DNA of 64,000 bases, taken from IMG/VR virus record IMGVR_UViG_3300020438_000030, positions 1 to 64,000 of that record. The stretch is one strand, 5' to 3'. The translations under genes and the position numbers were made by a program. This document shows, one piece after another, positions 6,650 through 60,760 of this stretch (the stretch's first letter is position 1; each line of letters starts with the position of its first letter). The notes below the pieces were generated by a model. The model made no database searches and was not told the origin of the DNA. It worked only from the letters and a program-made list of their open reading frames with translations. This DNA comes from a virus.

Positions 6650-6737
6650 GGGAGTGTGGCGGAATTGGTAGACGCATCAGACTTAAAATCTGTGGACTGT
6701 TACAGTCGTGCGAGTTCAAGTCTCGCCACTCCTACCA
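6650..6737 (+). tRNA. tRNA-Leu(UAA)
   Basis: Cloverleaf readable by eye: acceptor GGGAGTG/CACTCCT with the first pair G-U, D-loop with GGTAGACGC, anticodon arm CAGA-CTTAAAA-TCTG with anticodon TAA at 6684-6686, a long variable arm (GGACTGTTACAGTC) as expected for tRNA-Leu, T-loop GTTCAAG, and an encoded CCA end. It decodes UUA, a frequent codon in this AT-rich genome. Confidence 0.95.
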
Positions 6738-17185: not shown

Positions 17186-17321
17186 AGTAAGAAGCAAAAG
17201 CAAGTTTACAATGAGCTTTGTCTGCTTTACGAATAAGTTTTTGTGCTTCTTCGCGTGACAAACATTGTTCAGCTTTTACATTAAGTGCTTGTAATTTTTT
17301 ATGTTGTTTTAATGGATTCAT
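17163..17321 (-). CDS. Hypothetical basic protein, 52 aa
   Basis: A short minus-strand ORF that begins MNPLKQHKKLQALNVKAEQC and ends YYGSAHKI. Basic and helical. AGGAAA precedes the ATG. Its stop overlaps the next start and its start overlaps the upstream gene's end, giving a three-gene coupled cluster (17018-17487). Confidence 0.55.
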   Translation of the reverse strand: MNPLKQHKKLQALNVKAEQCLSREEAQKLIRKADKAHCKLAFASYYGSAHKI

Positions 17322-17487
17322 TTTCCTCGCTGTTTTTTGGTATAAAGTAATCTGTATATCCAGTATATTCGGCTACAGCTTTGTGTAATTGCCAGTACCT
17401 TTTGTACCAATCAGGTACCATCCCATAATGTGGCAACATAAAGTAGTCATCTTCATTGTTGATTAGTAATTGAATTAGTTCTTCCAT
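17299..17487 (-). CDS. Hypothetical acidic protein, 62 aa
   Basis: It begins MEELIQLLINNEDDYFMLPH, with a Trp/Tyr-rich middle (VPDWYKRYWQLHKAVAEYTG). It heads the minus-strand trio; the divergent Dps-like gene starts 45 bases away on the other strand. Function is unknown. Confidence 0.55.
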   Translation of the reverse strand: MEELIQLLINNEDDYFMLPHYGMVPDWYKRYWQLHKAVAEYTGYTDYFIPKNSEENESIKTT

Positions 17488-17531
17488 ATCTATTTTAGTA
17501 GAATAGAAACTAATAATAAACTAACTGGGCT

Positions 17532-18071
17532 ATGTATAGTGGAATCTCTTTGGAGCAGCCTAACCAAGTTCCTGAGCGGCAAGAAGAGCCAGTAACTAAC
17601 GATCCACAACCCAAGAGTAAGCGTGAACCCGTAAGTCGATTGGCCAATGAATTGATTGGTTTGGCTTGTCAAGCGACTCAATTGATGTTGCAGTCTCATT
17701 TGATTCATTTCAATTACGAAGAATCTAATTTTTTTGGTGTACATAAATTCACCAAGAAACAATATGAAAAACACCAGGAACAATTGGATCGACTCGGAGA
17801 ACTGGTGCGCTCTCTTGATTTCATGATGCCAATGTGTAGCAAGGGATTGCTTGGTGCTACTAAAAAATTTGATCATGTCGATTCGTATAGTGGTAATTCA
17901 ATGCTTCATAACTATTATAAAAACCTTGAAGAGTTTGGTATGTGCTGTAAAAAAACAGCTAAGCTAGCGTCCAAACAAGAAGCTTATGATATTGAAAATT
18001 ATTGTGGAGAATTAATTGAAGAAGCTTTTAAATCTTCTTGGATGATTAAAGCAATGCTGCGTAAAAATTAA
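17532..18071 (+). CDS. dps: Dps-like ferritin with intact ferroxidase residues, 179 aa
   Basis: Four-helix ferritin-like protein with a disordered N-terminus of about 30 residues. H59, H71, D86 and E90 have exactly the spacing (12, 15, 4) of the E. coli Dps ferroxidase ligands H51, H63, D78 and E82; E. coli D67 has no acidic counterpart. Dps oxidises and stores iron using peroxide and can shield DNA. Helices later in the sequence (YYKNLEEFGMCCKKTAKLAS, YCGELIEEAFKSSWMIKAML) complete the bundle. It lies 39 bases before hli, suggesting a joint photo-oxidative stress role in the infected cyanobacterium. Family recognised by pattern, not search. Confidence 0.7.
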   Translation: MYSGISLEQPNQVPERQEEPVTNDPQPKSKREPVSRLANELIGLACQATQLMLQSHLIHFNYEESNFFGVHKFTKKQYEKHQEQLDRLGELVRSLDFMMPMCSKGLLGATKKFDHVDSYSGNSMLHNYYKNLEEFGMCCKKTAKLASKQEAYDIENYCGELIEEAFKSSWMIKAMLRKN

Positions 18072-18110
18072 TAACAACGTTTAAAATAAAACATTAATTA
18101 AGTATTAATT

Positions 18111-18242
18111 ATGTCTTGCGAAAAGAATGAATGTAAAACACAAGAGGGTGAAGTTTTAAACGGCAGGCTCGCCATGCTAGGAATTGTTGCTGCTATTGGT
18201 GCTTATGCATTAACAGGACAAATCATTCCTGGTATTTGGTAA
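18111..18242 (+). CDS. hli: High-light-inducible protein Hli, 43 aa
   Basis: Single-helix chlorophyll-binding stress protein. The core LNGRLAMLGIVAAIGAYALT carries the ExxNGR-type chlorophyll-binding signature (E14-V-L-N-G-R) at the start of the membrane helix, and the tail GQIIPGIW fits the family. Cyanophage Hli proteins are thought to protect photosystems during infection. It is downstream of the Dps-like gene on the same strand. Its last 20 bases overlap the convergent endonuclease gene. Confidence 0.93.
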   Translation: MSCEKNECKTQEGEVLNGRLAMLGIVAAIGAYALTGQIIPGIW

Positions 18243-18483
18243 TATACTCAACCGCTTTTAATAATTGCTTTGGGTCATCATTCATATGGCCTAAAGCAAC
18301 ATTACATTTATGACATAACAACCCACGTATTTTATTTGTACTGTGACAATGATCTACGTATAAAGGTTTAATTGGTTTACTATCACAGATTTGACAACAA
18401 TACTTTTGTCTTTCTGCCATTTTGTTATAGTCTTCTTCTGTAATGCCATACCTATGTTTAAGGTTATGTTTACGGCTAGCCAC
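18223..18483 (-). CDS. HNH endonuclease, recombination endonuclease VII family, 86 aa
   Basis: RYGITEEDYNKMAERQKYCC, then CQICDSKP, YVDHCHSTNKIRGLLCHKCN and VALGHM form the zinc-bound His-Asn-His-type core of the endonuclease VII family. These resolve branched DNA in T4 but are often free-standing homing-like nucleases in phages. It is short (86 aa) and lacks the extra domains of T4 gp49. It converges with hli. Confidence 0.85.
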   Translation of the reverse strand: MASRKHNLKHRYGITEEDYNKMAERQKYCCQICDSKPIKPLYVDHCHSTNKIRGLLCHKCNVALGHMNDDPKQLLKAVEYITKYQE

Positions 18484-18603: not shown

Positions 18604-19902
18604 CTACTTCTTGATGATAGCCCAAACAAGATCATCGTAACGTCCACGACTCGGTCGGTTATCAAAAATTTGTACGTTCTTTTGATCTTCTTTAGGTAGT
18701 TTTTTCGTTAACATTTCTAAGTAATTTATATCTTGTATGTCTTCAATGATTAAGATTCCTCCCATTTTAACCATTGGATAATAGTGCTCAATAGCAAACA
18801 GCTGTGACGGCAAAGAATGAGGACCATCATCGATAATCACATCAAAACCTTCTGCACATTCATTGCAGAATAAACTAACGCTACCTCCGTTATAAGCATC
18901 CCCTTGATAGAAATCATAACGATCAGGATCCATTTGATCCCAAATCAAATCAGGGACAATGTCTTGAATATCAGAAAGAAATAATCTAAAACATGGTAAG
19001 TATTCATGCCAAAGCAAAGAAGATCCACCATGTTGTACTCCAATCTCTAGTAATGTTCCTTGAACATCACGATATTTTTCTAATAACGTGGCATAAATCC
19101 CTGTGTAATTATGAATTGTATTTTTATCTGTCCCACCAGGGGATTCAAAACCATTGATATTTAAATTTTCTAGCAACGAAGCTAGTTCTTTATTGGGCTC
19201 TTGCCATTCATCTTGTGTTTTCATTAGTTGTTCGTTTAAATACCTAGTACTATATAAACTTCTAGCATAGGGTTGCGTGTAATGCATAGCTTTATCTGTA
19301 CGATTTAAATTACTTTCCCAAAAATTAGTTACTACTGGTTGTCCTGTACCAATCCAAAACTCACGCCAATAGCGGTTGGGATAATTTAAATAATCATCTG
19401 AAAGCTCTGCTACATAACTAGAGTTAGCCCACCAAAACCCACCTGAAAAATGAGGATGATATCCCATTGATGTTTGTTCTTGCCAGTTCACACCAACAAG
19501 ATCTGAGGGTGGTGTTGTTTCATCTGCACCAAGTGCTAAATGATTAATGCATTTTTCCCATTGATGAATACAGAAAAATTCCATTAGATGACGCCAGTCA
19601 TCTGTATATTGTGTTCGCCTTGATACACCTTTGGTATGCATGTAAAGCACTGCTGCATCAGGGTTGTCTTTACACCAGGTATGTAAAGCTTTTAATGTTT
19701 CTGTTTCCTCCTGTTTATTCTTATTCTCGCTCGCAATAGCTTTATCTGGAATAGACAATAAGTCAAGGCTGCCGTTAAACCCAATGTACAAATGATCCAG
19801 TTGTTCATACAGTTTACTTGCTAAGAGTGCGCCTAGTTGTTCAAGATACATATCTTCCCAGTTATCTCCTGGGAAGACGTGATAAAAGACTGCATATTTC
19901 AT
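18604..19902 (-). CDS. Two-domain glycosyltransferase-like / SAM methyltransferase, 432 aa
   Basis: Residues about 1-230 resemble a glycosyltransferase domain found in many surface-glycan loci (YMHTKGVSR at 88, DLVGVNW at 134, HFSGGFWWA at 151). Residues about 265-432 form a class I methyltransferase: SAM loop LLEIGVQHGGSS at 284-295, FDVIIDDGPHS at 353-363 and GGILIIEDIQ. It is last in a three-gene operon, with its ATG overlapping the upstream stop (ATGA). It probably builds and methylates a glycan; the acceptor is unknown. Confidence 0.8.
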   Translation of the reverse strand: MKYAVFYHVFPGDNWEDMYLEQLGALLASKLYEQLDHLYIGFNGSLDLLSIPDKAIASENKNKQEETETLKALHTWCKDNPDAAVLYMHTKGVSRRTQYTDDWRHLMEFFCIHQWEKCINHLALGADETTPPSDLVGVNWQEQTSMGYHPHFSGGFWWANSSYVAELSDDYLNYPNRYWREFWIGTGQPVVTNFWESNLNRTDKAMHYTQPYARSLYSTRYLNEQLMKTQDEWQEPNKELASLLENLNINGFESPGGTDKNTIHNYTGIYATLLEKYRDVQGTLLEIGVQHGGSSLLWHEYLPCFRLFLSDIQDIVPDLIWDQMDPDRYDFYQGDAYNGGSVSLFCNECAEGFDVIIDDGPHSLPSQLFAIEHYYPMVKMGGILIIEDIQDINYLEMLTKKLPKEDQKNVQIFDNRPSRGRYDDLVWAIIKK

Positions 19903-21122
19903 TGATGATCCTGTGCTTCGTCTATATAAATATCTGGCATCATCGTAATAATTTTTCCTTTGTATTGATCATGACGTAACTTTGTTGTAATATAACCAGC
20001 AAAATTGTGTGCCAAAATCACAACATTATCTGGTTCGTCATCTAACATAAATTGACGACTTTGAATTTTCATTCCTGTTCCAGGTACAAACAATCCTTGT
20101 TTACTTGGTGTGTCATCTACAACATATTGTCCTTTCTCTGAATTCATTTGAAGTGCATTGAGGTATACACAACCTTTTGCTGCTGCTCCAAAGAAAACTG
20201 TTTTACCTTCTAGCTTATTTAAAAACACTGAGTCTTCGACAATTTTTTTGTAGCATTGACTATAAAAACTCCTGTAATCGTATGTTTCTTCTTGTGCAAT
20301 AAATTTTTCTGCTGCTTCTGTATCGGCATAAAAATCTTTATTAGTAATCCATAAACGCATTGATCCTCCATGAATAGCTACTTCTTCTGCATGATAGATA
20401 TTGAGACCGTATTTAGATAATAATTTTTTAAGTGGTTTAACCATCCAATAGTAATAATGTTCGTGATAAAACTGATCAAACTGCAACGTTTGAATTGTTC
20501 GTAATGTATAAGGAAACTCTAAAATCCAAGTACCATCCAGTTTTGCTGCAATGCCTTCTACAAAACGTTCAGCATCTGGTGTGTGCTGAAAAACATTTGT
20601 TGAAGTAATAAGATCTGCTTTAGGTACCTTGGTATCTTTATTAAAATAATCGTTGACATATTTAATTCCTTTCTTTTTATTTTCTTTTTTGAAAGATTTA
20701 CTGGCATCAACGTTGTATAAATTTAAATCTTTTTTGCTTTGAGATTGAAAAGCAGCTAACAATGTACCGTCATTTCCTCCAATGTCAATGATCGTGTCGT
20801 GTCGTAGATGTTTAACTGAATGCCACATCTCTCTGCAGTGATAAATATAAGGCATATTGATACCTGAATGATACAAATAATCTTTGTATAATTCGTCACT
20901 AGGTACTTCAGTATCTAGTTTGATTAGTAAGTCATTATCAATAGTGGCGCACAGTTGATATTTTTTAGCGTTTACTGCTGCTTGTTTTGAAAGACATAGA
21001 TTATTTACTAAAGGTTGAACGCCTAAGTTCAACAGAATTTTTTCACCAACGGAGTTCTTCTCTACGTGAGGGATTGAACGTCCAGTAGTTGACAGGGAAT
21101 CCTTTATTAAACGGAGTGTCAT
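19899..21122 (-). CDS. C-methyltransferase-like protein (sugar methylation), 407 aa
   Basis: Domain order fits sugar C-methyltransferases: an N-terminal segment with LGVQPLVNN, a SAM-binding site IIDIGGNDGTLL at 111-122, and a C-terminal part with GKTVFFGAAAKGCVYLN near 305. The usual N-terminal CxxC zinc ribbon before LG.QPL is absent. The start overlaps the upstream glycosyltransferase gene by 80 bases in another frame, so the true start may be internal. It likely methylates a nucleotide-linked hexose for the glycan made by its operon partners. Confidence 0.75.
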   Translation of the reverse strand: MTLRLIKDSLSTTGRSIPHVEKNSVGEKILLNLGVQPLVNNLCLSKQAAVNAKKYQLCATIDNDLLIKLDTEVPSDELYKDYLYHSGINMPYIYHCREMWHSVKHLRHDTIIDIGGNDGTLLAAFQSQSKKDLNLYNVDASKSFKKENKKKGIKYVNDYFNKDTKVPKADLITSTNVFQHTPDAERFVEGIAAKLDGTWILEFPYTLRTIQTLQFDQFYHEHYYYWMVKPLKKLLSKYGLNIYHAEEVAIHGGSMRLWITNKDFYADTEAAEKFIAQEETYDYRSFYSQCYKKIVEDSVFLNKLEGKTVFFGAAAKGCVYLNALQMNSEKGQYVVDDTPSKQGLFVPGTGMKIQSRQFMLDDEPDNVVILAHNFAGYITTKLRHDQYKGKIITMMPDIYIDEAQDHQ

Positions 21123-21777
21123 ACTTTTCTTGGCCGGGTTTTCCGCCCCATTTCTCTACATAATACATATAATTTTGCTGAAATGTATATTGATTTTTCT
21201 TTTTAAAACGGCTGGAGCTATTTAATGTGCTGGATCTATCATGTGTATTAGCTAAAGGATAATGTATTACATCAGCATTTGCTAATAAAATTCTGCGTTT
21301 GTAGTCGTTATCTTCAAAATAACCTGGGAAAAAGTTCTCATCAAGTAATCCTACTTTCTCAATAAGACTTGATGTAAAAATAAAACCACACATATCGTCT
21401 ATGCCTTGACCAAGAAATGCACCTTCTTTAAAATTTTTATTTAATAATTTTTTATATTGGCCTTTGGTTACCCACCAATCAAAACCAGTGACAATCCAGT
21501 AGTCACAATCAGTATTGTCACGTATAATTTGATTCACTGCCCCAGGGTAGCCTGAGTTTTGGTTGTTACTGACAACGGCAATCTCTTGAATATGTTCTGG
21601 TTTGTTATCGCAAATCCAATCAATAGCTTCGTCTACTGAAGGATTGATACCCATTGAATTATCTAAAACGTAATAGCGTTTTATGGGAACATCAATCGAT
21701 TTAAAATGGCGTACTAATTTCTCACCTTGCACCATAACTGGTACAGCAATAAGATCTAAGCACTTCATGGTTTTCAA
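21043..21777 (-). CDS. GT2-like glycosyltransferase, 244 aa
   Basis: NSGYPGAVNQII near residue 74, YWIVTGFDWW near 93, GLLDENFFPGYFEDNDYKRR near 143 and the C-terminal YVEKWGGKPGQEKYDTPFN are characteristic of family 2 glycosyltransferases in phage and cyanobacterial glycan loci. DW or DND could serve as the metal-binding site. First gene of the minus-strand operon; the divergent nuclease gene starts 31 bases away. Confidence 0.8.
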   Translation of the reverse strand: MKTMKCLDLIAVPVMVQGEKLVRHFKSIDVPIKRYYVLDNSMGINPSVDEAIDWICDNKPEHIQEIAVVSNNQNSGYPGAVNQIIRDNTDCDYWIVTGFDWWVTKGQYKKLLNKNFKEGAFLGQGIDDMCGFIFTSSLIEKVGLLDENFFPGYFEDNDYKRRILLANADVIHYPLANTHDRSSTLNSSSRFKKKNQYTFQQNYMYYVEKWGGKPGQEKYDTPFNKGFPVNYWTFNPSRREELRW

Positions 21778-32549: not shown

Positions 32550-34361
32550 TCAGTTATTTTTTAAAGCTGCAACTTCGGTTTCCAGGGTTTCTATCTTTGC
32601 GATTGCTTCCTGCAGTGCAGCAGTTAACAACGGTATAAGCTTGGATTTATCAATGCCTTGCATTACAGCTTTACCGTGTTCATCTACTTCGTCTTTAGTT
32701 CCAGTAACAGCCTGTGGTACGACAGCCTGTACTTCGTGAGCCAAGAAGCCGTCAACTTTGTCACCAGAAACACCAATAAAATTAAAGCGGTGAGCTTTAA
32801 GTTCATTGATACGGTCAATGGCTCCGGTCAGTGAAACAACGTTTTCTTTTAAACGATAGTCTGAAGTTTCTATGTAACTGGTAGAACTGCCATTAATTGA
32901 GATTTTTCCTCTTTCAGTGCCTCCATTGTCATGAAAAGTAATCATATTTCCACTTACATTGTTCCCAGAGTTATTTGCATATGAATTTCTCAGCATCAAA
33001 CAAGTGTAGTTAACATTTGTTGATTGAAAAATCACTATGCCATGGCTGTTTCCTTGGAAAGCAGCCATTTCTCCAGCGCCGTTGTAATTACTTGTGCGAC
33101 CCTTAAGTAAATTGCCCGAGCTAGTGATTCGCATCCGCTCGGTAGATCCGCCAGTTGTAAAAATTAAATGCTGACCTGATCTTACGGCTAAATCATTTCC
33201 ACTACCACCAGCCGCTATAAGACCTGCACTGCCTATATAACCAGCAAAACCATTACCAGCTTGATTCGCAAATTCAAGATATTGTTTAAACGACACACCA
33301 CCATCGGAGTGAATTCTCATCCGCTCGGAACTGTTGGTATCAAACGTTATTGTTTTGGCGTCACTGGAGTGGGTTGATCCGTGAAGGTCTATATTTGCTG
33401 AGCCACTACCTCCACCACTTAAGTGCAATGCAGCTGCAGAATTAGCGTTAAAAATTTGGTTAAATGTTGAGCTAGAACTGCCTAGCGTAATCGAGCCCGC
33501 AAATGAAGCAGCACCGTCCGCACTGATAAGTGAGGTAGTAGTACCATTTAATTGTCCATAGAATAAACCATTAGACCCAGTAGCTCTATTTATAGTCAAG
33601 TTTGCATTGCCGCCGCCTAATCCATTTATTAATAGCCCATTGTTAGCACTATGATCCCCAAACTCAGCGGAGCCGTCCGCATTAATCGTGCTAGTTACTG
33701 TTCCATTTAACTTGCCATTCCAAAGATCATTAGTACCTGCTGTTCTGTTCGAAACGTATGTTCCATTTTGTGAGATATAAGCTGCATTAGTTGAGGAAGT
33801 AGCTGTTCCTCCTACTATTACATTCCCCGAGCTGTCAATTCGCATCCGCTCAGTATTAGCGGTCCCAAATGTCATTAAATTCCCATCAAACATTTTAAGC
33901 AGACAATGAGGAGTGTTATCATTGCCTCCATTCGCGAGAATTAGATCGCCAGCGCTGTTAGAGATCCAGGCTTCACGCGTGTCACTCCCATCTTTTAATC
34001 GAATACTTGGAGTTGTACTTGCATCACTATTACCTTTGATAACAAGCAAAGCATCTATAGATGTTTCGCCAATCCCAACCTTGCCCAAGCTGTCTACACG
34101 TATACGTTCTGTCGCTGCAGTTGTAATTGCTACTGTATCTGCTGCAGGAGAATAAAGACCAGTATTATTATCATCAATAAAAGTAACACCTGGAGCACTT
34201 ACAGTTCCAGATGCAAATTCTGCAGTACCACTAACAGTTAGATTTGTTCCACCAGATATTGTAATACCACTTGCAAATACACTAGTACCATCCTCCAGCA
34301 GAACGATGTTTGGTTCCGTTGCATCAGTGTGCTGAAGGTTAACGACTCTGATGGTACTCAT
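32550..34361 (-). CDS. Tail fibre with C-terminal S74 chaperone domain, 603 aa
   Basis: Long beta-rich, Gly/Ser/Thr/Asn-rich fibre with repeated ERMRI-type segments. The last about 100 residues (SDYRLKENVVSLTGAIDRIN, then HRFNFIG, DGFLAHEVQAVVPQAVTG, SKLIPLLTAALQEAI and a terminal coiled coil) are an intramolecular S74 chaperone that trims itself at the Ser before DYR after trimer folding. A likely host-receptor-binding protein, one of several fibres in tandem here. Confidence 0.88.
   Translation of the reverse strand: MSTIRVVNLQHTDATEPNIVLLEDGTSVFASGITISGGTNLTVSGTAEFASGTVSAPGVTFIDDNNTGLYSPAADTVAITTAATERIRVDSLGKVGIGETSIDALLVIKGNSDASTTPSIRLKDGSDTREAWISNSAGDLILANGGNDNTPHCLLKMFDGNLMTFGTANTERMRIDSSGNVIVGGTATSSTNAAYISQNGTYVSNRTAGTNDLWNGKLNGTVTSTINADGSAEFGDHSANNGLLINGLGGGNANLTINRATGSNGLFYGQLNGTTTSLISADGAASFAGSITLGSSSSTFNQIFNANSAAALHLSGGGSGSANIDLHGSTHSSDAKTITFDTNSSERMRIHSDGGVSFKQYLEFANQAGNGFAGYIGSAGLIAAGGSGNDLAVRSGQHLIFTTGGSTERMRITSSGNLLKGRTSNYNGAGEMAAFQGNSHGIVIFQSTNVNYTCLMLRNSYANNSGNNVSGNMITFHDNGGTERGKISINGSSTSYIETSDYRLKENVVSLTGAIDRINELKAHRFNFIGVSGDKVDGFLAHEVQAVVPQAVTGTKDEVDEHGKAVMQGIDKSKLIPLLTAALQEAIAKIETLETEVAALKNN
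33826..33853 (-). repeat. Fibre repeat, copy in the 32550 gene
   Basis: GAGCTGTCAATTCGCATCCG differs at one base from the consensus of the dispersed fibre repeat. It encodes RMRIDSS on the minus strand. A second, more diverged copy is at about 33117-33140 in the same gene. Confidence 0.8.
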
Positions 34362-34415
34362 TTCTACGCAGTCTAATATCTTCTATTTTAACTCCAAAAT
34401 ACTGTTAACTATCTA

Positions 34416-34748
34416 TCACCAAGGAATACCTGCAGCATGTGTAGGATTTTCTTGCTCATCTAGATCAGAAGTTAAACTAGATTCCATGGAAGCAACTTGC
34501 TCTTCACCTAAGGAATCTTGCACCCAACCAATACAGATTGCTTCTGTTAAATCATCGTAAGCAACAAAGCCTGGATCAGAAGGATCAGCTGTAAAACCTT
34601 GTGAACCATAAGCACCTGAGTTGTAGTCTTCACCACTTACTTCGGGGTTGGGGCGAGAAGCTGCCAGATTCCAATGCACTGTATAGACTACACCATCAGA
34701 AAGTTCACGATCTAAAGTATTAACAGACCAAGTGTACGTATCAGCCAT
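34416..34748 (-). CDS. Conserved cyanophage fibre-region protein, 110 aa
   Basis: It begins MADTYTWSVNTLDRELSDGV and continues VYTVHWNLAAS; the start resembles a family frequent beside cyanophage fibres (short protein with Y-T-W and HW). It ends HAAGIPW. Perhaps a fibre assembly factor or minor virion protein; function not established. Confidence 0.6.
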   Translation of the reverse strand: MADTYTWSVNTLDRELSDGVVYTVHWNLAASRPNPEVSGEDYNSGAYGSQGFTADPSDPGFVAYDDLTEAICIGWVQDSLGEEQVASMESSLTSDLDEQENPTHAAGIPW

Positions 34749-34781
34749 TGTTATTAAGTAGTTTTTATTATTTTAACAGTA

Positions 34782-35168
34782 TTAAACAATATGCATACTT
34801 TCTAATGGTTCTAATACATTAGAAGAAAAATAATTTTGTGCATCAGCTTGTTGTTTAATTGTTAATAATTTAAGAAATTCAATATCATCTGAAACCACAC
34901 AATCGATACCGTCAAATCCTTTTTCAATACCAACGCGTAATCTTAAACCTCCATTCCATAGTTCTCTGCCATGCAGAAGAAGTGGGTTGCCCAGTTGATC
35001 TTGCTTTAAAAGTTCATAGTAACGTTCAAATTTTGGTTGATCTAGACAATTACGACAGGGTTTACCACTCCAAGTAATATCATCAAAAAGAATTTCCTGA
35101 AGTGGTTGATTATAATTGTATTTAGCTTTCCAGATTTTTAACACGTTCTTTAAGTTTTTCAATTTCAA
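34782..35168 (-). CDS. Hypothetical protein in fibre cluster, 128 aa
   Basis: Mixed alpha/beta protein (ILFDDITWSGKPCRNCLDQP, LLLHGRELWNGGLRLRVGIE) with a CRNC pair. It overlaps the end of the upstream S74 fibre gene by 47 bases, suggesting coupling, so a fibre chaperone or sugar-related role is possible. Confidence 0.55.
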   Translation of the reverse strand: MKLKNLKNVLKIWKAKYNYNQPLQEILFDDITWSGKPCRNCLDQPKFERYYELLKQDQLGNPLLLHGRELWNGGLRLRVGIEKGFDGIDCVVSDDIEFLKLLTIKQQADAQNYFSSNVLEPLESMHIV

Positions 35169-37155
35169 GAATTGATTCTTGCAATGCAGCAGTCAAAAGC
35201 GGAATAAGCTTGGATTGATCTATATATTGCATCTTTTCACCGTCTTTTTCACCTGTTACTGATTCAGGTACAACCAATTGAGCTTCATGAGCAAGAAAGC
35301 CATCAACTGTTAGCTCAGCATCAGTAATAAAATTAAAACGATGAACTGGTAAGTTTTTAAGACGAGGAATAGCATCAGTTAAATCAACAATGTTTTCCTT
35401 AAGTCTGTAGTCAGAACTTGTATTGTAAGCAGTGCTGCTACTGCTAGTTACAATAGTACCAACAGTAGTACCGGCTGTATTTCTAAAGCTAACAATTTGC
35501 CCATTATTTGTATTCCTACGAAGAACAAGAGCTTCTCCATTTGTACGAGTAATAACTACTTCACCGTGAGCTCTAATCTCAGTGCCTTGAGCTGCAAAAT
35601 TACTACCTGATTTTCCAACCAACAAATTGCCTGAGCTGTCAAACAGTCCTCGTTGTAGTCCGTTTGTAGCAAAAATTACTCCACCAGCTTGGTAGTTCCA
35701 TATATATGCATTAGTCGCATCTCCCATGCCCATCACAAGACCGTCTGATGCACCAGAACCTGTGCCTGTATTTGTTGACTGTATATAGGCAGAGCTGGCC
35801 GTATCTCCATTGTGCATTTGAACATATCTAGCAGGATTAGATGATGTTGTTCGCCCAATAACTAAAGTACCCGAGTTGGTGATTCTCATCTTCTCGGTAT
35901 TATTTGTTCCAAAAATTGTAGATTGGTTTTCATAATTCCATAGATACATATTCTGACCACCCCAGTTTCCAACGAAACCTCCTTGGCTAGAACCAGTACC
36001 TGTATTAGGATTTTGAAATAATACTGCCGTACCAAGTGTTGCACTATAAATATTTAAAGCCGCAGTACCAGCAGCACTATTGCCCATGTGAACTCTACCC
36101 GAGCTGTCGATTCGCATCCGCTCTGCAGCATTTACCATAAATTGCATGTGATCAGTATTATGTGCATATCGAATACCACCGGCAAACCTAGAATTTCCTG
36201 TTGTACCGTCTGCAAAAAATATCTCAGTATCAGAGGTTGTGCCTCCTCTTAAAGTCATTCCGCAATGAGATGCACGCGCTATTGTTAAAGCATCACCATA
36301 AATAGCAAATCCTGGAGTTGTTGTTCCTAAAAGCAACCTGCCTGAGCTGTCGATTCGCATGCGCTCGACCGGACCAGCAGTATTTAACGCAGTGTTCGAA
36401 AAGGTCATATATGACCCTCTTGCACTACCAGTCCATGTTTGATCTGAATGGACTTCAATCTCGGCTGTATTTGCAGAGCCCTCTCCATAACTAAGTGCAC
36501 CAATTAGCTGATTTGAACCGCTAACACTTGCACCTTTTTGAATAGTAATAGCACCTGCGCCTGCACTGTTATTCCCATTGCCTTTGACACATAAAAGCCC
36601 ACTGTTGCTTGTTGACGTATTACCTATTAACACACGTCCAGAAGATGTAATTCGCATCCACTCTGCACCTGCCGTGCCAAAACCTAGGTAATCATCAGAA
36701 TGACCGTAAGCTACAAATCCTCTAAGACCGCCTGCAGCATCATTAAAAACAAGTTGCCCAAAGCTAGATGCACCTGACTTAATAGTCATTCCACTATTGC
36801 CAGTGCTATTAATAACTAAATCATTAGCAGCAGACCACCCATCGCCAGATGGATCTGTGCTTCCAATCCCAATATTTCCCGAGCTGTCAATATTTAAACG
36901 GTTATTACCACCAGTAACTAAGTTAAGAGTATTAGTACCAGAAGAATATAAGCCAGTATCAGTATCTCCTTCAAAGGTAAGAGAAGGCTGTGATGCAGAT
37001 CCTAACTCAAGCGTTAGTTTTGATATAGGTGAGTCAGTAGTAAGAAGGGTACCACCAGCCGTGGGTAGAATAAAGGTTTGGTCTGCAGCTACAGCAGGTG
37101 CTTGGAGTTCAGAATAACCAGATGTTGCACCACGCAGCCTTAAAGTACCCGACAT
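35122..37155 (-). CDS. Tail fibre with C-terminal S74 chaperone domain, 677 aa
   Basis: The N-terminal GYSELQAPAVAADQTFILPT is typical of cyanophage fibres. The long beta-rich shaft has repeated ERMRIDSSG-type units. The C-terminal S74 chaperone starts near residue 580 (SSDYRLKENIVDLTDAIPRL, then DGFLAHEAQLVVPESVTG). Paralogous to the 32550 fibre; the two may be alternative or sequential adhesins. Confidence 0.88.
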   Translation of the reverse strand: MSGTLRLRGATSGYSELQAPAVAADQTFILPTAGGTLLTTDSPISKLTLELGSASQPSLTFEGDTDTGLYSSGTNTLNLVTGGNNRLNIDSSGNIGIGSTDPSGDGWSAANDLVINSTGNSGMTIKSGASSFGQLVFNDAAGGLRGFVAYGHSDDYLGFGTAGAEWMRITSSGRVLIGNTSTSNSGLLCVKGNGNNSAGAGAITIQKGASVSGSNQLIGALSYGEGSANTAEIEVHSDQTWTGSARGSYMTFSNTALNTAGPVERMRIDSSGRLLLGTTTPGFAIYGDALTIARASHCGMTLRGGTTSDTEIFFADGTTGNSRFAGGIRYAHNTDHMQFMVNAAERMRIDSSGRVHMGNSAAGTAALNIYSATLGTAVLFQNPNTGTGSSQGGFVGNWGGQNMYLWNYENQSTIFGTNNTEKMRITNSGTLVIGRTTSSNPARYVQMHNGDTASSAYIQSTNTGTGSGASDGLVMGMGDATNAYIWNYQAGGVIFATNGLQRGLFDSSGNLLVGKSGSNFAAQGTEIRAHGEVVITRTNGEALVLRRNTNNGQIVSFRNTAGTTVGTIVTSSSSTAYNTSSDYRLKENIVDLTDAIPRLKNLPVHRFNFITDAELTVDGFLAHEAQLVVPESVTGEKDGEKMQYIDQSKLIPLLTAALQESILEIEKLKERVKNLES
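36098..36125 (-). repeat. Fibre repeat, copy in the 35122 gene
   Basis: GAGCTGTCGATTCGCATCCG, the consensus 20-mer. Another copy with one change is at about 36344-36363 in the same gene; a truncated one lies near 36871. Confidence 0.85.
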
Positions 37156-37178
37156 TTTACTACTTTACTTTTTTCTAA

Positions 37179-37433
37179 TTATACGTCAGGTTGTTGTGCT
37201 GCAATGCTTGCTAGATAAGCATCGATTAGTTCTTGTGTCCAAAGAACACCAGCTACATCTTGTACTTCTTGTGGTGCTTCAGATACATCATCACCAGGGG
37301 AATAGACAGTACGGTGATAAGACCGTGCAATTTCAGCACCATCTTTAGAAATGATATCAGCACGACGGCATTGGATAATGCTATAAGGAGGAATAATTTC
37401 CAACTTATATTCAAAAGATTCTGTTAAAGCCAT
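37179..37433 (-). CDS. Conserved cyanophage fibre-region protein, 84 aa
   Basis: It begins MALTESFEYKLEIIPPYSII and continues QCRRADIISKDGAEIARSYH. The order matches a small protein often encoded between cyanophage fibre genes (PY..IQ.R.A..I.KDG.EI.RS.HR). Probably a virion or assembly protein; function unknown. Confidence 0.65.
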   Translation of the reverse strand: MALTESFEYKLEIIPPYSIIQCRRADIISKDGAEIARSYHRTVYSPGDDVSEAPQEVQDVAGVLWTQELIDAYLASIAAQQPDV

Positions 37434-37495
37434 ATTAGGAACTACCGACTGGTAGAAACAGGTTTAATGATTTTTAGTTTTGAGCCAGTTGCGGG

Positions 37496-39103
37496 CTATG
37501 AAGTCCTGTAAGAAAATACTCCATCAAGTCTTGTGGTATTAGCAAGAATAGTTGAACTATTGACCATGGCACTTCCACCTCCTGCAGGTATATGATTCAC
37601 ATAAGCTTGACCTGTACCAGCTCTAGCATTTAATTGAAGTGCTGATACACTAATTCCTAAGTTATTAAAATAGGCAATGCTACCTGAGCCAGATCCAGCT
37701 AAACCTTGAACTACATAAGGAAAGCCACCAACCAAAATACCAGTACCTGATAACGTTCCTTTATTTGTTAGTTCAACATAAAAACTAGCAATAACTATTT
37801 TTCCTACTTTTACATAATATCCTTGTATAGTTGCTATATATGATTGACCTGAAGCTCCTGCTGTTCCTATAATGCTTGGAGTAAAAGTACCTTCTTCGTA
37901 ATCATCTAGCGCATTTGCTTGTGCAGTATCACCGTTAAATGTAAGTCCGCCAGCAGCAAGAATTCGCATTCGCTCCTGAGCATTAGTTAGAAATCTTAGG
38001 TTGCTATTCTCCATTTGGGCAACCTCAGCGTGTGTATCACTGCCTACTTTTAGTTGGAACCCTTGACTATCGTTAGCTGCACCCGTAGCACCATTTGTAA
38101 GCATTATGCCTACAGTTGCTGATGATGATTGATGAATATGTAAGTGGCGTTGCGGTGTTATTCCAATCCCAACATTGCCCGAGCTGTCGATTCGCATCCG
38201 CTCGGTTGAGCCTGCTTCACCATCTCCAGTAGTCGAGAATGTCAAAGCACCTGGCATGTCATCAGTGCCAGGGGTGCCGTCTATAACAGAAGAAATTTTT
38301 GCACATTCAACAAAGTGACTTCCATCTGCACCTTGAAAATTAACTACACCAACAGTATTACCGTCTGACACTAATGTATTGCCACCAACACTAGCGCTGC
38401 CCGATTTAGCAAGTATTAGTTGTGCGCCTAGTGTACTGCCAGCAAAGTTAGAAACAACAGACAAAGCATAATTTGAATTACTTCCACTGCCTTCTAGTTG
38501 AATATGTGGGCTGTTAGTAGAATTGTAGAAATTACTACGCGCAACATTCGTACCAATCAACAGCTTGCCCGAGCTGTCGATTCGCATTGCTTCACTGGCA
38601 CTTCCAGCAGCTGCAGTATGGAACTGCAGTACACCATCATCTTTATTTGTTGTATCAGTTCCAGTGCCACCGATAATACGAGCAACCTGAGTATTATTCC
38701 AGTTAAAATCAAGAATGCCTAATGCAGCGTCAGCACCAGACCTATTAGCGTGAAAATCAATCTTGCCAAAAACATTAGTGGAGCTTGATAATCGGATACC
38801 TTCATTGTTAGAATCTATTGCTAAATCTAAGTTGTTTGCAGGACTTGCAGTTCCAATCCCTACGCGACTCGCGCTGTCGATTAATATCGCATTAGTACCG
38901 GCAGTAGATAGACCAATACTATTAGTGCCTGCATAATATAAACCGTTATCTGTATCACCACTAAACGTATAAGAAGGTGCTGCAGCTGTACCTGAAACTG
39001 CTTCAATTGGTGTGGTCATAGTGAGACCACTAATACTTATCGTAGGTTCTTCAAGAGAAGTACATCCTGTAATTGCACCGTCGCCGCCAAGTCGTAATGT
39101 CAT
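37496..39103 (-). CDS. Tail fibre, receptor-binding type, 535 aa
   Basis: Beta-rich shaft with ERMRIDSSG units and a DDYEEGTFTP segment near residue 405, common in cyanophage fibres. The C-terminus lacks S74 and instead has a Gly/Ser-rich beta domain (GKIVIASFYVELTNKGTLSG, ILVGGFPYVVQGLAGSGSGS), likely the receptor-binding tip. Shares the dispersed DNA repeat with the two S74 fibres. Confidence 0.8.
   Translation of the reverse strand: MTLRLGGDGAITGCTSLEEPTISISGLTMTTPIEAVSGTAAAPSYTFSGDTDNGLYYAGTNSIGLSTAGTNAILIDSASRVGIGTASPANNLDLAIDSNNEGIRLSSSTNVFGKIDFHANRSGADAALGILDFNWNNTQVARIIGGTGTDTTNKDDGVLQFHTAAAGSASEAMRIDSSGKLLIGTNVARSNFYNSTNSPHIQLEGSGSNSNYALSVVSNFAGSTLGAQLILAKSGSASVGGNTLVSDGNTVGVVNFQGADGSHFVECAKISSVIDGTPGTDDMPGALTFSTTGDGEAGSTERMRIDSSGNVGIGITPQRHLHIHQSSSATVGIMLTNGATGAANDSQGFQLKVGSDTHAEVAQMENSNLRFLTNAQERMRILAAGGLTFNGDTAQANALDDYEEGTFTPSIIGTAGASGQSYIATIQGYYVKVGKIVIASFYVELTNKGTLSGTGILVGGFPYVVQGLAGSGSGSIAYFNNLGISVSALQLNARAGTGQAYVNHIPAGGGSAMVNSSTILANTTRLDGVFSYRTS
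38177..38205 (-). repeat. Fibre repeat, copy in the 37496 gene
   Basis: GAGCTGTCGATTCGCATCCG, identical to the consensus. Another copy at about 38571-38587 keeps the first 17 bases; a decayed one is near 38870. Confidence 0.85.
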
Positions 39104-39114
39104 TGTTCTTTAAA

Positions 39115-39873
39115 TTAAACGATGGACCAGTTTTCACCGGTGCCAATAGTGACAGTGACACCAGAATTTAAATAAATAGGACCACAACTAGTGGCGTTTT
39201 CTCCTGATGGCAGAGTGAAACTTGTAGTTACATTCTGCTCATTCAATAGGAATACTCTATCACCGCCAGAACCAGTTGCTCCTCCACCAAGGATTGCCCA
39301 AGTTCCGTCGTACCCTTCAAATTGATTAAGGGTAGTGTTATACCGGATCATACCGGTAGATGAAGTTCCTGGTCTAGCTGCTGTTGTACCAGACGGAATT
39401 TTTAATGCACCGCTGCTAAATAGATGTGTATCTCCATTACCTGAAACACGTACCCATTCAGTGCCATCAGCAGTAACTGAAAGAGTGTTAGGGGCAACAG
39501 TAAAGATGCCTGTATTCTCGTCATCAATAAAAGTAATTGATGGTTCAGATGCACTGCCACTTTCAAAATAAATTCGGTCAACACCAGATAGTGTTCCGGT
39601 AACCGTTAAATCTCCAACAATTCCTGTTGTAAATCGGCCAATAGCACCTGAAATAGTGCCACTAGTTGTCGTGATATTTCCTGTTACGGTATTGTAGTTA
39701 CCACTATTTGTAATATCACCTTGAACATCCAGGTCACCATTAATGATGACATTACCACTAAAAGTAGGATTACGAAGAAGTCCTGAGACAGGTACGGTAA
39801 CACTTGCCTCGTTTGGTGAAACGCCTGTAGTAAACGTTATAAAATCAACGCGAACTTCGCCAAACTGTGGCAT
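39115..39873 (-). CDS. Tail fibre, short, 252 aa
   Basis: Gly/Thr/Ser-rich fibre (NVIINGDLDVQGDITNSGNY, SITFIDDENTGIFTVAPNTL) ending in a compact domain with TSSTGMIRYNTTLNQFEGYD, a motif shared with many phage fibres. It probably attaches to the larger 810-residue fibre encoded upstream. Confidence 0.75.
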   Translation of the reverse strand: MPQFGEVRVDFITFTTGVSPNEASVTVPVSGLLRNPTFSGNVIINGDLDVQGDITNSGNYNTVTGNITTTSGTISGAIGRFTTGIVGDLTVTGTLSGVDRIYFESGSASEPSITFIDDENTGIFTVAPNTLSVTADGTEWVRVSGNGDTHLFSSGALKIPSGTTAARPGTSSTGMIRYNTTLNQFEGYDGTWAILGGGATGSGGDRVFLLNEQNVTTSFTLPSGENATSCGPIYLNSGVTVTIGTGENWSIV

Positions 39874-39914
39874 GATTAAAAGATCTCAGCTACTACTTTT
39901 AAATACATTCTAAC

Positions 39915-42347
39915 TCAGTTACCCCAAATTGTTAGGACGGCACCGTAGACGCCAGAAGAGATTGTTGCTTTTCTGCTTGCACCTGCAGTAAATTCAATCG
40001 CATCTCCTGAGCTGGTATATAAGCCTGTATTGGCATCGTCAATAAAAGTAATTCCTGGATTAGTTTGGTTTCCTGAAGGGAAGAAAGCTTGATCTCTACT
40101 TAATAATCCGCTTTGGAAATAAGCTTCTCCACTTACATTTAAATCTCCACTAACAGTTAAGTTATCTCCAACAATAAAAATGTCATCAATATAAAGATCA
40201 TTAAACTGACCTGTTGTAAACGTTGCTGTTTCTCCTGTAACAGTAGTTCCAGAAATAGTTCCAGTTACTGTTAGGTTTTGTCCAATAAGAATTCCGCTAA
40301 CAAAATTACTTGTACCGGTGACTGTAATACCTTCACGGAAAATACTAGAGCCACTGACAACAATGCCATTATCAAAGACTGAATTGCCACTGACTTCTAG
40401 ATCACCACTAACAGTAAGGTTGTCTCCAATAACAAAGTCATCATCGACAAATAAATCTTGGAACGTACCTGTGGCAAATAGTGCTCTAACACCTGTAACT
40501 GTTTGACCCGAAATTGTTGCGCCTGAAACAGTATTCGCAAGAACAGTTAAACCTGTAACAGTACCTGCAAAAGCTCCGCTGGCTGCTGTTATTTCTTGTA
40601 CTGCATCAATAAATTCACCTGAAATGCGATAGCCAGTAATCGTATTACTAACAAATAAATCACCAGTAATTGATATTTCACCACCACTAATAACAATGCC
40701 ACTAATTGTACTTGTCCAGATAGGTGCTTCACCTGCACCTTGTGAAACTAAAACTTGTCCATGAGCACCGTAGTTTTCTCCCGAGATTCCCAGGGCACCA
40801 TAACGACTAATACGGAAACGTTCCTGACCACTGGTAGTAAAGCCTAGATATTTTTCTTGTGCTGGGTTGCCATCAATAGTTCCACTGGTAACAAAGATAC
40901 CTGTATCATCTTGTCCTTCAAAACTAATAGAAGGTCTTAGTGCAGTTCCGGAAGCAAATACACCTGTTTGTGCATGAACTGTTGTACCTGAGAATGACGT
41001 GCCTGTTACGTTAGTAAAGACTCCACTTACTCCTGTAAATGTTGTAAAGGAAGCAGTAGTACCTGTAGCAGTTACAAAGTGTCCACTTGTTGTAGAAACA
41101 GTTGTTCCTGTAATTGTTCCGCTTACATATACATTGTCACCTGATAAAGTTCCGGTAATCAAAGGAGAGGTAATAATAGTATCAAAATTACCTGACTGTG
41201 CTGTAATTACTTCACCGCTTACTTCTCCTGTAATTGTTACACCAGAAGCAAAGTAACCTGAGCCACTAACAAATAAATTTTCTAATACAGTGAAACTACC
41301 GCTAACAGTTTGGTCACCACTAAATTGTAAGTTTGCTGCAGTTAATGTTTGTGCTTGTAATGAAGTAAATAAACCAGAAGCACCAGTAACAGTAGTACCA
41401 GAAAGATAAGTAAAAAATCCTGATGTGCCGTAAGTAGCTGCTAAATTTGCAGTATCACCTGTAATTGTTGTACCAGATAAAGAAGTAAAGTGTGAATTAA
41501 ATCCAGTAACATTTAAAAACTGACCATTGTCACCTGTGATCGTTGTACCAGATAAATTTATTACATTAATAAATGTTCCTGTTGTTCTTTCAAAGAAAGC
41601 TGAGTCACCGGTAATGGTTGTACCAGAGATTTGCGTTGTAAATACGGCTGTTTGACCTGTAAGTGTCGTATATTTTCCGATGTCACCTGTAATCGTCGCA
41701 CCAGAAATAGTGCCTGTTGCATTAATGTCATTGCTATTAATAGTGCCACTATGAGTTAAAACTCCTGTAAATGTTGCATTGTTTACATTAAGAGTATCTA
41801 TTTGAGCTACTTGTGCGTATAAATCGTTGATATCAGCATCGACAATAATTCCGGAGACAACACCAAAACTTTCTCCTGTCAGGGTTGCACCTGACATGGT
41901 GTCAAAGAAACCAGTAACAAAATCTATGGTTGTGCCAGTAGCAATTGTAAAGTTGCCTGAACTAATTTCAATAAAATCTGCAATAACATTATTGACTTCA
42001 ATTTGACTGCCAGTAATCGTTCCTGTTACAGAAAAACTTCCACTGGTCGTTAAATCACCACCAACAATAACCGCTTGAAAATCCGAATCGCCACTTACAG
42101 TAAGGTTATTAAGACTCGTGTCACCGCTTACACCTAAATTACCTGTAATGGTAATATTGTTATATGTCGGATCTTCGCCAACGTTAATATAATATTCATC
42201 TAAGTAGTTTCTAAAACCACTAAAAGTAATCTTTTTATTTCTTAAGGCAGGGTCAACTTCAAAGACATGAACCAGGGTCAGAAGATCTGCATTGGCAATA
42301 TCTACCGATTCAATCGTCGGAAATTGTGAGATCTTTCTATTTGCCAC
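39915..42347 (-). CDS. Long repetitive tail fibre/proximal fibre, 810 aa (GTG start)
   Basis: It starts GTG. The N-terminus MANRKISQFPTIESVDIANA resembles cyanophage virion-attachment segments. The shaft is built of many ISGTTITGD/TVSGDL-type repeats, expected to form a triple beta helix. The end has GITFIDDANTGLYTSSG. Probably the proximal part that joins distal fibres to the tail. Confidence 0.82.
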   Translation of the reverse strand: MANRKISQFPTIESVDIANADLLTLVHVFEVDPALRNKKITFSGFRNYLDEYYINVGEDPTYNNITITGNLGVSGDTSLNNLTVSGDSDFQAVIVGGDLTTSGSFSVTGTITGSQIEVNNVIADFIEISSGNFTIATGTTIDFVTGFFDTMSGATLTGESFGVVSGIIVDADINDLYAQVAQIDTLNVNNATFTGVLTHSGTINSNDINATGTISGATITGDIGKYTTLTGQTAVFTTQISGTTITGDSAFFERTTGTFINVINLSGTTITGDNGQFLNVTGFNSHFTSLSGTTITGDTANLAATYGTSGFFTYLSGTTVTGASGLFTSLQAQTLTAANLQFSGDQTVSGSFTVLENLFVSGSGYFASGVTITGEVSGEVITAQSGNFDTIITSPLITGTLSGDNVYVSGTITGTTVSTTSGHFVTATGTTASFTTFTGVSGVFTNVTGTSFSGTTVHAQTGVFASGTALRPSISFEGQDDTGIFVTSGTIDGNPAQEKYLGFTTSGQERFRISRYGALGISGENYGAHGQVLVSQGAGEAPIWTSTISGIVISGGEISITGDLFVSNTITGYRISGEFIDAVQEITAASGAFAGTVTGLTVLANTVSGATISGQTVTGVRALFATGTFQDLFVDDDFVIGDNLTVSGDLEVSGNSVFDNGIVVSGSSIFREGITVTGTSNFVSGILIGQNLTVTGTISGTTVTGETATFTTGQFNDLYIDDIFIVGDNLTVSGDLNVSGEAYFQSGLLSRDQAFFPSGNQTNPGITFIDDANTGLYTSSGDAIEFTAGASRKATISSGVYGAVLTIWGN

Positions 42348-44186: not shown

Positions 44187-44779
44187 TGGGTCTTAAGCGA
44201 GGTAACGTACGCTCAGAAGAGTTTGAATGGATTACTAACCGTGATTTGGTTGACTCTGCCCATCTCCTTATGGGTCAAATTGACCTCGATCCAGCTAGCT
44301 CTGCATTTGCTAACGAATACGTCGGAGCAAACCATTACTACACTCCAAAAGAAGATGGCTTAAATGAAGAAAAATGGTTTGGAAATGTTTATTTATTTCC
44401 TCCAAGCCAATCTTATTTTTGGCACAAGAAAAGCCAACGCTGGAAAACAACAAGAGGATTGTCTCCAACATTGACTTCGGGACATGCATTATGGTGGAGA
44501 ACATTAAAACGTAAATGGTTATCAGGAGAAATTGAACAAGGTTTATATTTTTCTAATTTTATTGATATGACAATGTACTGTCAGGATATTTTTGATTATC
44601 CTGTTTGCATTTTAAAATCACGACCCACATTAACGCGTCACTACTATGCTGACGATAAAATTTTATCAAGAAACACAGGTTGTAGTTTGGTTGTTTATCT
44701 GCAGCCTAGAGACAATATAGAAGAAACTACTCAAGAATTTATTAATATTTATTCTGAAAAAGGCAGAATTATTGTGTAA
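44186..44779 (+). CDS. Phage N6-adenine methyltransferase-like (Dam family), 197 aa
   Basis: Matches the phage Dam family layout: IDLDPASSAFANEYVGANHY near residue 31, YYTPKEDGLNEEKWFGNVYL, then FPPSQ at 71-75 where the catalytic [D/N/S]PP[Y/F/W] normally stands, and a C-terminal CILKSRPTL. The replacement of both flanking residues (F and S) is unusual and could mean lost or altered activity. The true role may be DNA modification against host restriction, if active. Confidence 0.65.
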   Translation: MGLKRGNVRSEEFEWITNRDLVDSAHLLMGQIDLDPASSAFANEYVGANHYYTPKEDGLNEEKWFGNVYLFPPSQSYFWHKKSQRWKTTRGLSPTLTSGHALWWRTLKRKWLSGEIEQGLYFSNFIDMTMYCQDIFDYPVCILKSRPTLTRHYYADDKILSRNTGCSLVVYLQPRDNIEETTQEFINIYSEKGRIIV

Positions 44780-44802
44780 ACTATTTGAACTGAGTTCTAA
44801 TT

Positions 44803-45387
44803 ATGACGGTTTTAAGCGATAAAGAAATTTGTGTATTTGCTGACGAAGGAATGATTACTCCCTTTCATTCTTCCCTAATTAATAAGGAAAATGAAGTTCC
44901 TATTCTTAGTTATGGTCTTAGCTCCTATGGTTATGATATTCGGTTATCGCCTAATCAATGCCTCTTATTTGGTGGTGTCCAGCACGGTATGTGCGATGCT
45001 AAAAACTTTGACCCTGAAATCCTAAAGGAAACTGAACTCCATGAAGATGACCACGGACAGTATTTTATTATTCCTCCTTTTGGCTATTGCCTCGGCGTTG
45101 CTGTTGAACGCTTGGCTTTACCCCGCGACGTCACTGTAGTTGCTGTAGGTAAAAGTACGTATGCAAGGGCTGGAATTATGGCAAACATTACACCAGCTGA
45201 AGCTGGTTGGGAAGGTCATTTGACACTAGAGATTAGTAACTGTACTCCTTTGTTTAATAAAATTTATGCCAATGAAGGAATCTGTCAATTGTTATTTTTC
45301 CAAGGAGAACCTTGTGAAGTTGATTATCAAATGCGTAAAGGAAAATATCAAAAACAACCCTATGAAGTAGTCTTATCTAAGGTTTAA
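44803..45387 (+). CDS. dcd: dCTP deaminase
   Basis: 194 residues. GYDIRLSP near 43, GKSTYARAGI at 116-125, ITPAEAGWEGHLTLEISN at 129-146 with catalytic Glu133, and IYANEGICQLLFF at 154-166 are typical of Dcd. It converts dCTP to dUTP, the route to dUMP used by ThyX. It converges with a minus-strand gene (4-base overlap). Confidence 0.93.
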   Translation: MTVLSDKEICVFADEGMITPFHSSLINKENEVPILSYGLSSYGYDIRLSPNQCLLFGGVQHGMCDAKNFDPEILKETELHEDDHGQYFIIPPFGYCLGVAVERLALPRDVTVVAVGKSTYARAGIMANITPAEAGWEGHLTLEISNCTPLFNKIYANEGICQLLFFQGEPCEVDYQMRKGKYQKQPYEVVLSKV

Positions 45388-60086: not shown

Positions 60087-60198
60087 TTTCTTTTATCCTC
60101 CAGTTATACGGAAAATTAAGTAATCGGGTGAAAGACTCAGGCAGTATTTATGCCCTATCTAAAGAAAATTTTAGCAGTCTGTAATTTATTAGACTGTT

Positions 60199-60756: not shown

Positions 60757-60760
60757 TAGA

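What the first reader, a model, noticed from the sequence alone, without database searches (positions are those of the whole stretch)
17532..18242. Dps-like ferritin beside hli: a possible photo-oxidative stress module
A 179-residue protein with H59, H71, D86 and E90 spaced as in the Dps ferroxidase site lies 39 bases before hli. Hli is common in cyanophages; a phage-encoded Dps is unusual. Together they could limit light damage, peroxide and free iron in the host while the phage replicates.
Basis: partly seen in the sequence, partly recalled or inferred. Interest (0 to 1): 0.7.

Follow-up and report, generated by a model that had tools for sequence, protein, structure and literature searches.

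The report
Cyanophage Dps miniferritin, core phage gene
A virus of aquatic cyanobacteria carries its own copy of Dps, a small iron-storing cage protein that bacteria use against oxidative damage; it is genuine and old in this phage group, but the light-stress gene beside it is a neighbour shared with only one other known relative.

Summary
Window 17532-18071 (+) encodes a 179-aa protein with H59, H71, D86 and E90 at the Dps ferroxidase spacing. hli starts 39 bases later, at 18111. Pfam Ferritin, a confident AlphaFold four-helix model and a Foldseek list headed by Dps chains identify it as a Dps miniferritin. The four residues are invariant in all 55 sequences of its clade.

The window is an S-EIV1-type cyanophage. 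S-EIV1 (KJ410740) already has this gene annotated 'DNA-binding ferritin-like protein'. 53 IMG/VR loci carry it, many in conserved synteny, and no record lacking it was seen to span the interval. It forms one deeply divergent clade, so it is not a recent acquisition.

The 'module' is not supported. hli adjoins dps only in the window and one close relative; elsewhere the neighbour differs (sulfate adenylyltransferase in S-EIV1). Phage Dps is also not rare.

The freshest finding is an altered ferroxidase surround across the clade: the site-B acid is K/G/R, the Trp usual in relatives is F/L/A, and His81 is new and invariant.

Most likely function: an iron-oxidising cage limiting Fenton damage during infection. 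This is inferred from residues and fold; nothing was assayed.

The parts
17532..18071 (+). dps-like miniferritin gene, 179 aa
   Evidence: Pfam PF00210 1.3e-12; PHROG 3636 9.6e-23; C. jejuni Dps 3kwo 1.1e-7; AF2 pLDDT 86.6 four-helix bundle; Foldseek/VIA top matches Dps
17532..17627 (+). N-terminal tail, residues 1-32: low confidence, proline-rich, net negative, with basic patch K28-S-K-R31
   Evidence: mean pLDDT about 49-58 for residues 1-30; charges
17706..17708 (+). codon of ferroxidase His59 (Listeria H31)
   Evidence: invariant 55/55
17742..17744 (+). codon of ferroxidase His71 (Listeria H43)
   Evidence: invariant 55/55
17754..17756 (+). codon of Lys75, where canonical Dps has the site-B acid (E. 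coli D67)
   Evidence: K40/G14/R1 in the clade; E/D 23, M 8, G 2, N 1 in 34 other Dps
17772..17774 (+). codon of His81, invariant in the phage clade, L/M/A elsewhere
17787..17789 (+). codon of ferroxidase Asp86 (Listeria D58)
   Evidence: invariant 55/55
17799..17801 (+). codon of ferroxidase Glu90 (Listeria E62)
   Evidence: invariant 55/55
18111..18242 (+). hli, 43-aa high-light-inducible protein; optional neighbour, not a conserved partner
   Evidence: PHROG 178 4.2e-18; beside dps only in the window and L001/L010
18223..18483 (-). endonuclease VII-like HNH gene, convergent with hli (20-base overlap); the next gene after dps in several relatives
   Evidence: Pfam Endonuclease_7 4.6e-23

Best explanation
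The gene encodes a genuine Dps miniferritin that is a core gene of the S-EIV1-type cyanophages. By homology, twelve subunits form a hollow cage. Fe(II) binds at each dimer interface to His59 of one subunit and Asp86/Glu90 of its partner, with His71 nearby; it is oxidised, most likely by H2O2, and stored as ferric mineral. During infection this would remove free iron and peroxide released as the photosynthetic cell is taken over, so that Fenton chemistry does not damage replicating phage DNA and host machinery. Shown here: family, fold, conserved ferroxidase residues, purifying selection, long residence in the lineage. Inferred: dodecamer, iron oxidation, oxidant, timing and benefit. hli is a later and optional neighbour.
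For: Pfam PF00210 at twice its cut-off. Profile search hits P. aeruginosa Dps 8ff9 at 7e-22 and then many other Dps. AF2 mean pLDDT 86.6, helices 33-61, 67-94, 103-108 (the BC helix typical of Dps), 121-148 and 152-177. Foldseek hits are Dps chains; VIA Z 21 to MrgA and T. elongatus Dps. H59, H71, D86 and E90 kept in 55/55 sequences down to about 40% identity. dN/dS about 0.1-0.15. S-EIV1 homologue annotated as DNA-binding ferritin-like. Conserved flanks in many relatives; no Dps-negative record contains the whole interval. Listed ligands match the published Dps site (PMC7762939).
Against: No biochemistry. The acid of iron site B is replaced by K, G or R, and the Trp seen in other Dps is F, L or A, so oxidation rate or oxidant choice may differ. 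Expression timing and any benefit in light are untested. Oligomeric state could not be modelled.
Confidence: 0.72

Rival explanations
1. dps and hli form a dedicated photo-oxidative stress module, expressed and acting together.
For: In the window and in L001/L010 the two genes are a two-gene plus-strand unit 39-43 bases apart, with minus-strand genes on both sides. A terminator-like hairpin follows hli at 18265-18299, though that scan is weak evidence.
Against: The pairing exists in only two of the loci. L002/L003 have the endonuclease VII gene directly after dps, and S-EIV1 has sulfate adenylyltransferase. One other record carries four hli genes about 12 kb away from its dps; the remaining records have none beyond partial weak hits.
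Confidence: 0.12
2. The protein mainly coats or compacts DNA (phage genome or host nucleoid) rather than handling iron.
For: DNA binding is a classical Dps activity; the tail carries a short basic patch (KSKR), and many homologues have KxPxKSK with net charge +1 to +4.
Against: The window tail is net -2 and the tails of its nearest relatives are net negative; the L055-L062 branch has clearly acidic tails. By contrast the ferroxidase residues never vary.
Confidence: 0.15
3. The protein is a virion component, for example an iron or DNA-protecting cargo packaged in the head.
For: BFVD holds phage proteins in which a Dps-like domain occurs inside larger proteins named 'prohead protease', so head-linked Dps domains may exist in other phages.
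Against: Here dps lies in the replication/nucleotide region, over 40 kb from the head genes at 58923-63491, and is not fused to anything.
Confidence: 0.07
4. The ferroxidase centre is altered enough that the protein stores or buffers iron (or another metal such as zinc) slowly and acts mainly as a metal sink.
For: Clade-wide loss of the site-B acid, loss of the Trp next to the first His, and a new invariant His81.
Against: All four principal ligands are strictly kept. The site-B acid is also absent from 11 of 34 other Dps sampled here, and an Asn there in Nostoc Dps4 does not abolish Fe(II) oxidation by O2 (PMC6675082).
Confidence: 0.2

Closest known systems
Synechococcus phage S-EIV1 'DNA-binding ferritin-like protein' (AHV82153, KJ410740)
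   Same: Same gene, 49% identity, same ferroxidase residues, same genome region between the DNA polymerase and primase genes; the major head protein is 86% identical.
   Different: S-EIV1 has Gly at the site-B position, a different tail, and sulfate adenylyltransferase, not hli, as the next gene.
Cellular Dps: P. aeruginosa PA0962 (8ff9), C. jejuni Dps (3kwo), B. subtilis MrgA (2chp), H. pylori NapA (1ji4)
   Same: Same fold including the BC helix, same H-x11-H-x14-D-x3-E site.
   Different: 16-26% identity; most have an acid at +4 after the second His and Trp after the first; no His81 equivalent in the 34 compared sequences.
Cyanobacterial His-type Dps (N. punctiforme Dps4, T. elongatus DpsA)
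   Same: Same fold (VIA Z 20-21); also lacks the acid at position 67.
   Different: Those replace the site-A Asp by His78 (PMC6675082), whereas the phage protein keeps Asp86; extra His is elsewhere (H81). NCBIfam cyanobacterial DpsA scores 21 bits against a cut-off of 300.
Other phage Dps (Synechococcus phage S-SRM01, Salmonella phage pSal-SNUABM-01, Lactobacillus phages)
   Same: Phage-encoded Dps with the same four-ligand spacing in the two checked; one report proposes an antioxidant role in Lactobacillus phages (PMC6669764).
   Different: They lie outside the S-EIV1-type clade in the tree, which is one side of a long, fully supported branch.

Membership tests
Dps miniferritin family | Four-helix bundle with a short helix in the B-C loop | tested here: met
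   AF2 helices 33-61, 67-94, 103-108, 121-148, 152-177, pLDDT 86.6; Foldseek and VIA top hits Dps
Dps miniferritin family | Intersubunit ferroxidase ligands His, His, Asp, Glu at Dps spacing | tested here: met
   H59, H71, D86, E90; invariant 55/55; ligands per PMC7762939
Dps miniferritin family | Sequence profile match above curated cut-off | tested here: met
   PF00210 48.3 bits against 24.5
Dps miniferritin family | Dodecameric hollow cage | not testable with these tools
   Only monomer prediction was available
Dps miniferritin family | Fe(II) oxidation, preferably with H2O2, and iron storage | not testable with these tools
   Needs purified protein
Canonical (E. coli/Listeria-type) ferroxidase subclass of Dps | Acid at position 67 (four after the second His), water-mediated site B | tested here: not met
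   K75 here; K40/G14/R1 in the clade; canonical definition in PMC6675082
His-type ferroxidase Dps of cyanobacteria (NpDps4, TeDpsA) | His in place of the site-A Asp (His78) | tested here: not met
   D86 invariant
His-type ferroxidase Dps of cyanobacteria (NpDps4, TeDpsA) | His164 from a third subunit at site B | not tested
   Residue correspondence in helix D was not mapped
High-light-inducible protein (Hli) | Chlorophyll-binding motif ExxNGRxAMxG and Hli profile | tested here: met
   EVLNGRLAMLG in 18111-18242; PHROG 178 4.2e-18
S-EIV1-type cyanophage lineage | Shared major head protein and collinear replication region | tested here: met
   Head protein 86% identical to S-EIV1, PHROG 1357; DNA polymerase 65% and primase 60%

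The most novel reading that the evidence does not exclude
S-EIV1-type phages have evolved their own Dps subfamily with a re-engineered ferroxidase centre (site-B acid to K/G/R, Trp to F/L/A, new invariant His81) whose chemistry, for example oxidant preference or metal, is tuned to an infected photosynthetic cell and differs from every Dps class described so far.
Probability: 0.2. Interest if true: 0.5.

Novelty: new member of a known kind. Interest (0 to 1): 0.3.

Why it matters
It shows that iron and peroxide control by a phage-encoded Dps is a long-standing feature of an abundant cyanophage lineage (at least 599 stretches in IMG/VR encode its head protein), not an occasional borrowed gene. 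That makes it a reasonable target for asking whether phages protect their replicating DNA from photosynthetic oxidants. The altered site surround offers a natural variant for ferroxidase studies. The reading as a paired dps-hli module should not be carried forward as a general statement.

Tried and rejected
1) dps-hli as a conserved operon: rejected, 2 loci only. 2) Recent capture from a host: not supported. A genome scan with the clade's patterns found one confirmed cellular match, at 29% identity in a Halobacteriovorax MAG, no plasmid matched the S-EIV1 protein, and the clade sits on a branch of 4.74 changes per column with 100/100 support. The cellular rows of that tree came from a single phylum and no cyanobacterial DpsA could be included, so the ultimate donor is unknown. 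3) His-type cyanobacterial ferroxidase centre: rejected, the site-A Asp is kept. 4) The antisense ORF 17490-17876 (-) inside dps: its hits in relatives mirror dps itself, no independent support. 5) Promoter scan: 5 found against 6.9 expected by chance, uninformative. 7) The original S-EIV1 paper is not held in the library, so what its authors said about the gene is unknown to me. 8) Full-text searches found no paper treating a cyanophage Dps; the library is incomplete.

Full report
What is there. Both genes are plus-strand and are bounded by minus-strand ORFs: 17299-17487 upstream, and an endonuclease VII-like gene at 18223-18483 downstream that overlaps the end of hli by 20 bases.

Identity of the protein. 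Pfam reports only Ferritin PF00210, 1.3e-12, 48.3 bits against a cut-off of 24.5; PHROG 3636 'DNA binding protein' matches at 9.6e-23. Against solved structures by sequence, the best single-sequence hit is C. jejuni Dps (3kwo, 1.1e-7), and a profile of the phage family hits P. aeruginosa Dps (8ff9) at 7e-22, followed by many other Dps. AlphaFold2 with 31 relatives gives mean pLDDT 86.6 and the Dps layout: four long helices plus a short helix at 103-108 between B and C. Foldseek's listed PDB matches are Dps-family chains, and VIA-align gives Z 21.4 to B. subtilis MrgA and 21.2 to a T. elongatus Dps.

Ferroxidase site. The spacing equals Listeria Dps H31, H43, D58, E62. A review gives Glu62 and Asp58 of one subunit and His31 of its partner as iron ligands, with His43 the other candidate (PMC7762939). 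All four residues, and also H56 and H81, are invariant in 55 of 55 sequences of the clade (some of these are near-copies). Three clade-wide differences stand out against 34 other Dps (32 cellular from one bacterial phylum and two other phages). The residue four after the second His is K40/G14/R1 instead of mostly E or D. The Trp after the first His (34/34 there) is L30/F24/A1. His81 replaces L/M/A. The acid at that first position coordinates site B through water in canonical Dps and is already absent from Nostoc Dps4 (PMC6675082) and from 11 of the 34 comparison sequences, so its loss does not argue against activity. Because the His81 position is L, M or A elsewhere it is probably buried; this is inference.

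Which virus. The window is 64,000 of 67,369 bases of a virus record. Its 387-aa major head protein at 58923-60086 (PHROG 1357) is 86% identical to the corresponding region of Synechococcus phage S-EIV1, its DNA polymerase 65% and primase 60%. S-EIV1 carries the same gene, 49% identical, annotated 'DNA-binding ferritin-like protein', followed directly by sulfate adenylyltransferase. The gene is therefore already known, at least as an annotation.

Is it a core gene? An alignment-based scan of IMG/VR returned 54 loci, 53 of them from this clade. Many of the syntenic ones share an upstream 83-aa gene, a downstream 282-aa gene and the primase. Of 13 long records chosen by head protein rather than by Dps, five have an intact Dps and a sixth has fragments. 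None of the seven without any match contains both the upstream DNA polymerase and the downstream 282-aa gene as an uninterrupted interval: six have at most one of the two, and the seventh, G177, has them at opposite contig ends. Absence has therefore not been demonstrated in any of them, but the number of informative records is small. Selection is purifying: dN 0.073-0.115, dS 0.53-0.91. In a maximum-likelihood tree of 77 rows the clade is one side of a branch of length 4.74 with 100/100 support; the outgroup sample is narrow and lacks cyanobacterial DpsA.

The supposed module. hli stands beside dps only in the window and in L001/L010, its closest relative. In L002 and L003, 87% and 83% identical in Dps, the endonuclease VII gene follows dps directly. 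Among 28 dps-bearing records, hli was found convincingly in three: the window, that relative, and a record with four hli genes about 12 kb from its dps; two further hits were partial and weak. hli DNA is 82% identical over 74 bases to hli of the T4-like cyanophage S-CAM8, which fits insertion from the cyanophage gene pool. hli in S-EIV1-type phages was noted before: a marine group with S-EIV1 is listed with hli and ptoX (PMC5332604). So dps is old and hli is a recent optional neighbour. Co-transcription in these two phages remains possible and untested.

How unusual is a phage Dps? One divergent phage Dps as query hit 35 GenBank phage records: Aeromonas, Proteus, Cronobacter, Synechococcus and others. 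BFVD lists many phage Dps. A published report on Lactobacillus phages proposes an antioxidant role (PMC6669764).

Most likely mechanism. A dodecameric cage binds Fe(II) at dimer interfaces, oxidises it, most likely with H2O2, and stores it, limiting Fenton damage to phage DNA in an illuminated, dying photosynthetic cell. Family, fold, residues and selection are shown; assembly, chemistry, timing and benefit are inferred. DNA binding is less likely for this member because its tail is net -2 despite a KSKR patch, although many relatives have basic tails. A virion role is possible but unsupported: dps lies over 40 kb from the head genes.

Verdict. New member of a known kind, with a mildly interesting altered ferroxidase surround.

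Noticed in passing
BFVD entries A0A6J7WPK9, A0A6J7XDU5, A0A6J7WIS1 and others: Dps-like domains occur inside larger phage proteins of 290-763 aa named 'DNA-binding protein Dps' or 'Prohead protease'; possible head-linked Dps domains in uncultured phages.
   Followed up: no
window 17772-17774 (His81) and relatives: A histidine invariant in 55/55 phage Dps sits where other Dps have L/M/A; its role is unknown.
   Followed up: partly
L008 20540-22006 (S-EIV1): In S-EIV1 the gene directly after dps is a sulfate adenylyltransferase, overlapping dps by one base; a sulfur-assimilation neighbour instead of hli.
   Followed up: partly
L007/L053 (IMGVR 3300005346_000026) near 1700-2159 of the locus: The dps copy is interrupted: the open frame stops early although homology continues, suggesting a frameshift or an assembly error.
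   Followed up: no
window 18604-21777 (-): A three-gene minus-strand block of glycosyltransferase/methyltransferase-like genes next to dps is kept in the close relatives but absent from S-EIV1.
   Followed up: partly
window 32550-42347 (-): A run of long, repetitive tail-fibre-like proteins with recurring motifs; several end in a segment resembling the intramolecular chaperone type (SSDYRLKENV).
   Followed up: no
window 6650-6737 (+): A single tRNA-Leu (anticodon TAA) that is 90% identical to the one in marine cyanophage S-BM3.
   Followed up: no
L051 record (G022) 44717-45335: Four tandem hli copies in one S-EIV1-type record.
   Followed up: no
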